DNA of 35,949 nt from Victivallaceae bacterium (GTDB lineage Bacteria; Verrucomicrobiota; Lentisphaeria; Victivallales; Victivallaceae), in assembly GCA_024405735.1 (NCBI GenBank), contig JAKSOF010000019.1:1-35949 (forward strand), given 5' to 3'. A program made the position numbers and the translations under genes. Below the pieces are notes generated by a model. The model saw nothing but the letters and a program-made list of their open reading frames with translations, was not told the DNA's origin and ran no database searches. Positions 62 through 33,957 of this stretch are shown here, piece by piece (the stretch's first letter is position 1; each line of letters begins with the position of its first letter).

Positions 62-69
62 TGGTTTTT

Positions 70-125
70 CTCTCATCTCTCATCTCTCATCTCTCATCTC
101 TCATCTCTCATCTCTCATCTCTCAT
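70..125. repeat. Perfect heptamer tandem repeat (CTCTCAT)x8
   Basis: Eight uninterrupted copies of CTCTCAT occupy 70-125, with a partial ninth. The tract lies about 240 bp beyond the oppC stop codon, next to repeat copy C. A unit of 7 is not a multiple of 3, and no convincing reading frame crosses it. It looks like a minisatellite that can change length by slippage. Confidence 0.95.
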
Positions 126-134
126 CTCTAAAAC

Positions 135-360
135 CGCAGGAGATTTTAAGGGGGCAGGGGGATCTTTAGCAAAAAGTAAAAAACTACCATACGCGAAGTC
201 GCGAGTACCGGAAGTGCGAAGCACCGAGGAACGGATGCGCGAGAGCGCGGGGGCTCCCCCGAAAATCGACCGGCTCGTCACGGCGTAGCCCGCAGGGCGA
301 AGACGGAAGCCGCGAAGCGGGGCGCACCCTCTCACGGGTGCGCAGGAGATTTTAAGGGGG
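135..360. repeat. 20-bp direct repeats bracketing a hairpin-rich block; rest of the 1-362 gap is non-coding
   Basis: A 20-base string beginning CGCAGGAGATTTTAAG occurs at 135-154 and again at 341-360. Between the two copies are several short palindromes: GTGC-GAA-GCAC near 217, GGGGG-CT-CCCCC near 250, GCCC-GCA-GGGC near 288, CCGC-GAA-GCGG near 310, and GCGCACCC-TCTCAC-GGGTGCGC at 322-343. I see no credible gene in 1-362. The last hairpin lies just past the oppC stop on the minus strand but has no T-run, so it is not a standard intrinsic terminator. Confidence 0.8.
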
Positions 361-18783: not shown

Positions 18784-19026
18784 GTACTTTCCGCAGATAT
18801 TTGCGGATGATCGTTTTGTCCGCGTTTTAAACGTTTGTCACCGCAAATCTCCGCGGTCTCGTCTGTTTGTTACCGCAAAGAGGACGGGCGTCCCACGCGG
18901 GCTAATGCTTCGCTTTACGCTCCGCCCGCCCGACTGCTTGATATGCGATGCTCCCCATGCCGATGTTTCTCTCGCGAATGTCATCGCGAAAAAAAGCGGA
19001 GGAATACCGCATACGCTTTATTTGTC

Positions 19027-19422
19027 GTCGGATGCGAGGCGGTTGCCGCCGAGCGCGCAGTCGGATGGGAGCGATTTTCCGCATTGCAAGCAATGCGGAA
19101 ATGCGCAAACAATTGTTTGCGCAAGTGACCGTAGACGAGCACGGTAGCCGCGAGCGAACGAAGCGGCAAATCGAGCCGGAGTGAAACGACGGCACGGTTT
19201 GTAAAACGAAGCGGCAAATCGAGCCGGAGTGAAACGACGGCACGGTTTGTAAAGCGAAGTGAAGCGCAGGCGTATGGGAGTAAAAAGGGGAACATCCACA
19301 TCCGTTTTGACCACGGTCGCACGGGGAAAGGGGTGGTTAAGGAGGGGAAAGCCGGAAGAGTACGGCTGTCCCCTCCTTGCACCTGACACATCGGGTATTT
19401 CCGCTCACTTCCCTGTTTTTCT
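19027..19422 (+). repeat. Dispersed multi-hairpin repeat, copy A
   Basis: Near-identical to copy B (33617-33926) over long stretches. Hairpins in order: GGCGG/CCGCC (19038-19050), CCGCATTGC/GCAATGCGG (19079-19098), the perfect palindrome GCGCAAACAATTGTTTGCGC (19103-19122), and GGAGGGGA-AGCCG/CGGCT-TCCCCTCC (19341-19376). Copy A carries an extra pair of 48-bp units at 19157-19252 that copy B lacks. It may be a non-coding RNA, a REP/BIME-like DNA element, or a non-autonomous mobile element. Confidence 0.9.
19157..19252. repeat. Two tandem 48-bp units inside repeat copy A
   Basis: The 48-base unit beginning AACGAAGCGGCAAATCGAG occurs at 19157-19204 and again at 19205-19252 without change. Copy B has only a short, different segment at this place. 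Confidence 0.9.
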
Positions 19423-33616: not shown

Positions 33617-33926
33617 GTCGGATGCGAGGCGGTTGCCGCCGAGCGCGCAGTCGGATGGGAGCGATTTTACGCATTGCAGAGCAATGCGGAAATGCGCAAA
33701 CAGTTGTTTGCGCAAGCTCTCCGTAGACGAGCACGGTAGCCGCGAGAGAGCCGAATGCAATGAGGCGAACGCAGGCGTATGGGAGTAAAAAGGGGAACAT
33801 CCACATCCGTTTCGACTGCGGTCGCACGGGAAAAGGGGTGGTTAAGGAGGGGAAAGCCGGAAGAGTACGGCTGTCCCCTCCTTGCACCTTACACGTTGGA
33901 TATTTCCGCTCACCTCCCTGTTTTTC
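33617..33926 (+). repeat. Dispersed multi-hairpin repeat, copy B
   Basis: It is nearly identical to copy A over its left end (33617-33745) and right part (33768-33926), but lacks the two 48-bp units. Hairpins: GGCGG/CCGCC (33628-33640), CGCATTGC/GCAATGCG near 33670-33690, GCGCAAACA/TGTTTGCGC near 33694-33713, and GGAGGGGA-AGCCG/CGGCT-TCCCCTCC (33846-33881). It begins 13 bp after the WaaG-like stop codon. Confidence 0.9.
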
Positions 33927-33957
33927 TCACCTGATATACCTTACTCTCATCTCTTCC

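What the first reader, a model, noticed from the sequence alone, without database searches (positions are those of the whole stretch)
19027..19422. Dispersed multi-hairpin intergenic repeat with a compensatory stem change
Copies A (19027-19422) and B (33617-33926), plus the truncated, inverted copy C (1-61), share long near-identical sequence and four hairpins in fixed order. The first stem is GGCGG/CCGCC in A and B but GTCGG/CCGAC in C: two changes that keep the pair. Paired change with kept structure suggests selection on a folded RNA or single-stranded DNA form, not only sequence copying. The copies sit between operons in both orientations. A structured RNA, a REP/BIME-like DNA element or a non-autonomous mobile element would all fit; I know no named family with this set.
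Basis: partly seen in the sequence, partly recalled or inferred. Interest (0 to 1): 0.62.

Follow-up and report, generated by a model that had tools for sequence, protein, structure and literature searches.

The report
Structured mobile repeat in Lentisphaeria gut bacteria
The repeated intergenic sequence is a member of an apparently undescribed family of short, gene-less mobile DNA elements found across one order of gut bacteria, and its body folds into a strongly conserved shape, most likely an RNA, whose paired bases change together between species; what that shape does is unknown.

Summary
The window lies in a Lentisphaeria MAG (1.89 Mb) with 21 covariance-model matches. Copy C is not truncated biologically: the contig starts there. 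The same fold occurs in 31 of 137 genomes of the order (2 families, 7 genera), with up to roughly 100 copies per genome. Its anatomy: hairpin P1 between invariant GCGA and GAGCGCGCAG; a long-range helix P6 (CAG-NN … N'N'-CGAGCA) enclosing hairpins P2 and P3; P4; a long purine/pyrimidine hairpin P5. P1 and P6 covary strongly (95.6% of cells paired against 72.5% in shuffles; covariation 0.478 against 0.100, 0/500). In two relatives the complete 385-620 bp elements have 24-bp terminal inverted repeats and about 9-bp target duplications, with no gene inside: non-autonomous transposons (MITE-like). In the window's own genome the ends and duplications are eroded. No Rfam family matches; HEARO/IscB, RAYT and recurrent protein partners were not found. 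Stems are almost purely Watson-Crick and wobble counts are strand-neutral, so folded RNA is the favoured reading, but folded single-stranded DNA is not excluded. No transcript data exist, and the mobilising transposase was not found.

The parts
19027..19422 (+). Copy A of the element (body; extra 48-bp tandem duplication inside P4)
   Evidence: model match G000:C11:19028-19194, E 1.9e-29
19038..19050 (+). A: hairpin P1 GGCGG-TTG-CCGCC between invariant GCGA and GAGCGCGCAG
   Evidence: sequence; covariation
19060..19062 (+). A: 5' arm of long-range helix P6 (GTC)
19076..19101 (+). A: hairpin P2 (TTTCCGCATTGC/GCAATGCGGAAA)
   Evidence: folds
19102..19123 (+). A: hairpin P3 (TGCGCAAAC/GTTTGCGCA)
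   Evidence: covariation; G-C to A-T double change with G-T intermediate among G000 copies
19134..19141 (+). A: 3' arm of P6 (GAC) followed by invariant CGAGCA
19147..19272 (+). A: P4 domain (GCCGCGAG ... GCGCAGGCG)
19339..19378 (+). A: terminal hairpin P5 (AAGGAGGGG-AAA-GCCG ... CGGC-TGT-CCCCTCCTT)
   Evidence: varies in step across species
33617..33927 (+). Copy B of the element, between a glycosyltransferase gene and a UDP-glucose dehydrogenase gene
   Evidence: model match E 6.1e-34
33628..33640 (+). B: hairpin P1
33844..33883 (+). B: terminal hairpin P5
1..61 (-). Copy C: 5' end of an element (P1 = GTCGG/CCGAC), cut by the contig start

Best explanation
The repeat is a short, gene-less (non-autonomous, MITE-like) mobile element whose body of about 260-300 bases is a conserved folded module. 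Shown: the fold and its covariation; the many copies in Lentisphaeria genomes; and, in relatives, inverted repeats with about 9-bp target duplications, which mean insertion by a DDE-type transposase supplied in trans. Inferred: that the module is transcribed from the strand carrying GCGA-P1-GAGCGCGCAG and works as an RNA, probably bound by a protein or active by itself, and that its function keeps the fold intact while the element's ends change freely between species. The copies in the window are probably older members whose ends have eroded.
For: 21 model matches in the own genome and 31/137 genomes of the order. P1+P6: 95.6% of cells paired vs 72.5% shuffled, covariation 0.478 vs 0.100 (0/500), collapsing to 0.03-0.10 when slid by 1-3 columns. 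P6 pairs 81% within a copy vs 41% across species, 14 distinct 5' arms. Folding z mean -4.0 on the sense strand, -3.4 on the antisense, sense lower in 16 of 21. G007: 171 TIR matches vs 0 control; 15 complete copies of 395-621 bp with core inside; shared flanks 6.3 vs 4.4 bases, 0/300 shuffles. G032: complete copies of about 385 bp with duplications such as TTTTCAAAA and ATATGAAA. Core conserved while ends differ by species.
Against: No autonomous partner or transposase with these ends was found. No target duplication is demonstrable in the window's own genome (6.06 vs 5.38 control, maximum 6.18). No expression data. Stems are almost only Watson-Crick, and G-T vs A-C counts are neutral (52:40, p 0.13; 16:15), so RNA is not favoured by wobble. 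No recurrent protein partner.
Confidence: 0.58

Rival explanations
1. The same mobile element, but the conserved fold works as single-stranded DNA or a cruciform, as a recognition structure for a transposase or recombinase or during replication, and is never needed as RNA.
For: Stems are about 97% Watson-Crick; G-T and A-C mismatches are equally common. P1 is exchanged wholesale in otherwise near-identical copies of one genome (GGCGGTTGCCGCC vs GCACCGCGAGGGTGC), as DNA palindrome exchange would do.
Against: The conserved fold is internal and includes a long-range helix (P6) around two hairpins, with long invariant single-stranded strings, which is more typical of RNA; the mobility ends are separate TIRs; the sense strand folds better relative to shuffles in 16 of 21 species.
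Confidence: 0.24
2. An ordinary MITE whose palindromes are kept by copying, gene conversion and template switching; the apparent covariation reflects subfamily history and no function is selected.
For: Mosaic, nested and partly deleted copies are common in the own genome; three cores have a broken P1 pair; TIR-bounded gene-less elements are ordinary.
Against: P6 is a long-range pairing of short arms that palindrome repair would not keep; invariant strings persist across 2 families and 7 genera while ends and spacers change fully; the observed covariation exceeded all 500 shuffles.
Confidence: 0.12
3. A stand-alone guide RNA of an OMEGA system (IscB/HEARO) or a bridge RNA of an IS110-type element, left without its protein gene.
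For: Multi-hairpin RNA tied to mobile DNA, many gene-less copies; one copy in G005 has an IS110-type gene right behind it.
Against: No HEARO match in 78 genomes (control silent) nor at E<=10 on copy A; no RRXRR protein in the own genome (control silent); the 5' flank is constant within a species up to the TIR, not variable like a guide; the IS110 gene interrupts P4 and looks like a nested insertion; no recurrent partner gene.
Confidence: 0.04
4. A cis-acting RNA at gene ends (terminator or attenuator) that spread by copying.
For: B directly follows a gene; several G007 copies sit just after terminator hairpins.
Against: Both orientations, between convergent and co-directional genes; no gene family in common; no T-run directly after P5; the G007 position preference is explained by A/T-rich insertion targets.
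Confidence: 0.02

Closest known systems
MITEs (non-autonomous derivatives of DDE insertion sequences)
   Same: Short, no gene, many copies, terminal inverted repeats GGCTCTGTTCCC..., about 9-bp target duplications in A/T-rich sites (shown in G007 and G032)
   Different: Body is a conserved, covarying multi-helix fold shared across genera while the ends differ by species; no parent insertion sequence found
IStrons (group I intron ribozyme joined to an insertion sequence; PMC4227781)
   Same: A structured RNA-like module carried by a DNA transposon
   Different: No group I intron match in Rfam; no transposase gene in the elements; intergenic, not inside genes
HEARO / OMEGA guide RNAs of IscB (RF02033)
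   Same: Multi-hairpin RNA linked to mobile DNA, can occur stand-alone
   Different: No model match, no IscB found, no variable guide region; TIRs and target duplications are not a feature of IS200/IS605-type elements (own knowledge)
REP/BIME palindromes with RAYT transposases
   Same: Dispersed intergenic palindromic repeats in many copies
   Different: Much longer, multi-helix, TIR-bounded in relatives; no Y1_Tnp match over its cut-off in the own genome

Membership tests
MITE | Terminal inverted repeats | tested here: met
   24-bp TIRs in G007 (171 matches, 0 control) and G032 (25, 0 control); not resolved in the window's own genome
MITE | Target site duplication | tested here: met
   G007 6.3 vs 4.4 shared bases, 0/300; G032 complete copies. 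In the own genome not demonstrable
MITE | Short, no transposase gene | tested here: met
   385-621 bp, no ORF recurring
MITE | Related autonomous element with the same ends | tested here: inconclusive
   None found in G007/G032; draft assemblies break at these repeats
Structured RNA family | Covarying base pairs across species | tested here: met
Structured RNA family | Discrete transcript | not testable with these tools
   no expression data
Any Rfam 15 family | Model match | tested here: not met
   (only weak chance matches)
HEARO / IscB guide RNA | RF02033 match and IscB protein | tested here: not met
   the control genomes were silent in the genome searches, so absence is not proven
REP / RAYT | Y1 transposase in the genome | tested here: not met
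   one sub-threshold broken fragment; controls rang in 5 genomes
IS110 bridge RNA | Adjacent IS110 recombinase, RNA in its end | tested here: not met
   no recurrent neighbour; the single IS110 gene interrupts an RNA copy in G005
Group I/II intron (IStron) | Intron model match | tested here: not met

The most novel reading that the evidence does not exclude
The elements are vehicles of a new class of functional RNA (a ribozyme or an RNA of a ribonucleoprotein) that repeatedly switched between transposon ends: a gene-less transposon whose only cargo is a conserved RNA, kept intact in tens to about a hundred copies per genome across an order of gut bacteria.
Probability: 0.33. Interest if true: 0.82.

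Novelty: new variant of a known kind. Interest (0 to 1): 0.6.

Why it matters
MITEs are normally seen as passive debris of insertion sequences. Here the inside of the element is better conserved than its ends and has the signature of a selected fold. If it is an RNA, it would be a new structured RNA family of bacteria carried as the sole cargo of a mobile element, and its partner protein or catalytic activity becomes a direct experimental question. Practically, the family also explains why several of these Lentisphaeria assemblies break at so many contig ends.

Tried and rejected
Rfam at gathering and relaxed thresholds: only chance matches. HEARO/IscB, Y1 transposase and DDE_Tnp_1 searches: no partner. 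Neighbour-protein clustering over the fetched loci: no recurrent family. G-T against A-C strand test: neutral. Core in viral contigs, element in phages and plasmids: none. Orthologous site of A in three relatives: synteny broken, not informative. Target duplications in the own genome: not above control. Transposase inside TIR pairs of G007 and G032: none in the loci read. Literature searches for a described family in Lentisphaerae: none found in the open library; subscription papers are not covered.

Full report
Observation. Copy C on the minus strand at 1-61 carries P1 as GTCGG/CCGAC. The window is bases 1-35949 of contig 11 of a 1.89-Mb, 26-contig draft genome, so C is cut by the contig start; other copies also lie at contig ends (L064, L069, L070-L073). 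The organism is a Lentisphaeria MAG: a UDP-glucose dehydrogenase in the window is 96% identical to one of Lentisphaeria bacterium UBA1791. BLAST finds some 20 larger copies plus several solo 5' cores in the genome; the covariance model later gave 21 matches.

Anatomy. Aligning copies from several species gives: invariant GCGA, hairpin P1, invariant GAGCGCGCAG, a short 5' arm of helix P6, hairpins P2 and P3, the 3' arm of P6, invariant CGAGCA, then roughly TAAG-GCC-GCGAG, hairpin P4, GARCGCAGGC, a spacer of about 60-100 bases, and a long hairpin P5 with a purine-rich 5' and pyrimidine-rich 3' arm and an internal AAA/TGT step. P1 takes at least seven arm pairs: GGCGG/CCGCC, GTCGG/CCGAC, GCGGG/CCCGC, GCCTC/GAGGC, ACGGG/CCCGT, GGCGC/GCGCC, and GCACC/GGGTGC, with the flanks unchanged. 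P6 takes GTC/GAC, GACC/GGTC, GTCC/GGAC, GCCC/GGGC, GGCT/AGCC, GACT/AGTC, GTCT/AGAC and others.

Statistics. On 29 sequences, P1 and P6 pair in 95.6% of cells against 72.5% after shuffling partners; 37 cells changed on both sides against 9.1; covariation 0.478 against 0.100; no shuffle of 500 reached these three values; sliding the partner by 1-3 columns collapses the score. This structure was read from the same sequences, so some advantage over the slid versions is expected; the shuffles keep columns but not kinship. P6 pairs 81% within a copy and 41% between species. The P1-P4 stretch folds with mean z -4.0 on the sense strand and -3.4 on the antisense.

Distribution. The model R1 matches 24 of 78 genomes of the family and 31 of 137 of the order, in two families and seven genera. 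It was not found in viral contigs by exact core, in plasmids or in phages. Rfam 15 has no matching family.

Mobility. In G007 the left inverted repeat GGCTCTGTTCCCGATATTGGTTGA is followed by the core at a fixed distance, except one rearranged copy, among the left ends read, and 171 TIR matches occur in the genome with none for the reversed pattern. Fifteen complete copies of 395-621 bp run TIR-core-TIR, most with P5; their outer flanks share direct repeats such as ATAATGTTT, TAAGAAAAA and GCAAAAAAGAA (mean 6.3 vs 4.4 bases, 0 of 300 shuffles). In G032 complete copies of about 385 bp have related ends (GGCTCTGTTCCCCACATGGGTAGGT) and flanks such as TTTTCAAAA and ATATGAAA. No transposase lies between such ends in the loci read. 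In G031/G003, G017, G009 and G033 the flanks beyond the core differ from these and from each other, although the core is the same. In the window's genome the copies begin near CATACGCTTTGATTGC and end near CTCCCTGTTTTTCT, but no duplication stands out; they are probably older.

Site B. In the UBA1791 relative, the same gene pair (79-88% identical) holds no copy of B; it holds a diverged copy of the same family in the opposite orientation. This is best read as independent insertions. Copy C lies near the same dppC/mnmG region as a G005 copy; with the number of sites compared, two such coincidences are not above expectation by my rough estimate.

RNA or DNA. Counting G-T against A-C mismatches in stems was meant to name the folded strand. 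It did not: 52 to 40 over all hairpins (p 0.13) and 16 to 15 in P2/P3. In the own genome the few wobbles are all G-T (7 to 0), including a G-C to A-T change of P3 with its G-T intermediate, but this subset was not chosen in advance. Long-range P6 and the invariant strings favour RNA; the near-absence of wobble and the wholesale P1 exchange in G007 fit DNA as well.

Mechanism. Most likely: insertion by a transposase supplied in trans onto the TIRs (anatomy shown in relatives, enzyme inferred), and a transcribed structured RNA as the only cargo (fold shown, transcription and function inferred). Membership: the relatives' elements meet the MITE features except a known parent element; the fold belongs to no Rfam family; HEARO, RAYT, IS110 bridge RNA and intron tests were not met, with the caveat that the control genomes were silent for the IscB and HEARO searches, unlike the Y1 search.

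Verdict. A real, order-wide family of gene-less mobile elements with a conserved covarying fold, apparently undescribed in Rfam and in the open literature searched. Function unproven.

Noticed in passing
window 181-345: A second dispersed repeat (AAAAACTACCATACGCGAAG...CGCGAGAGCGCGGGGGCTCCCCCGAAAATC...) that is also nested inside three copies of the element (L060, L074, L075), where it replaces the P3 region.
   Followed up: partly
window 18880-19013: A third dispersed module (CCCACGCGGGCTAATGCT...CCCGCCCGACTGC...) lies directly upstream of copy A and of many copies in the genome; intergenic regions are mosaics of several repeats.
   Followed up: partly
window 69-128: Microsatellite of about eight TCTCATC units beside copy C; similar GAGATGAGAG runs flank other copies.
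   Followed up: no
window 19160-19255: 48-bp tandem duplication inside P4 of copy A (GAAGCGGCAAATCGAGCCGGAGTGAAACGACGGCACGGTTTGTAAAAC).
   Followed up: partly
L059 (G000:C6:21676-21997): A copy lacking P1, explained by deletion between the two GTCGGAT direct repeats that flank P1.
   Followed up: no
L209 (G005:C153): IS110-type transposase gene inserted in the P4 region of an element copy.
   Followed up: no
L181, L185, L192 (G007): An apparent IS3-like insertion (TGATATGCACCC..., ORF start GGAGTGCATATTTTATGG) at the P5 region of several elements, recurring at similar positions.
   Followed up: no
L301 (G032:C94:47383): A roughly 150-bp element with the same type of TIRs but no core, containing only a P5-like purine/pyrimidine hairpin.
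   Followed up: no
L183 (G007:C98): Insertion flanked by a roughly 38-base duplication that contains a transcription terminator hairpin; several copies sit directly after terminators.
   Followed up: no
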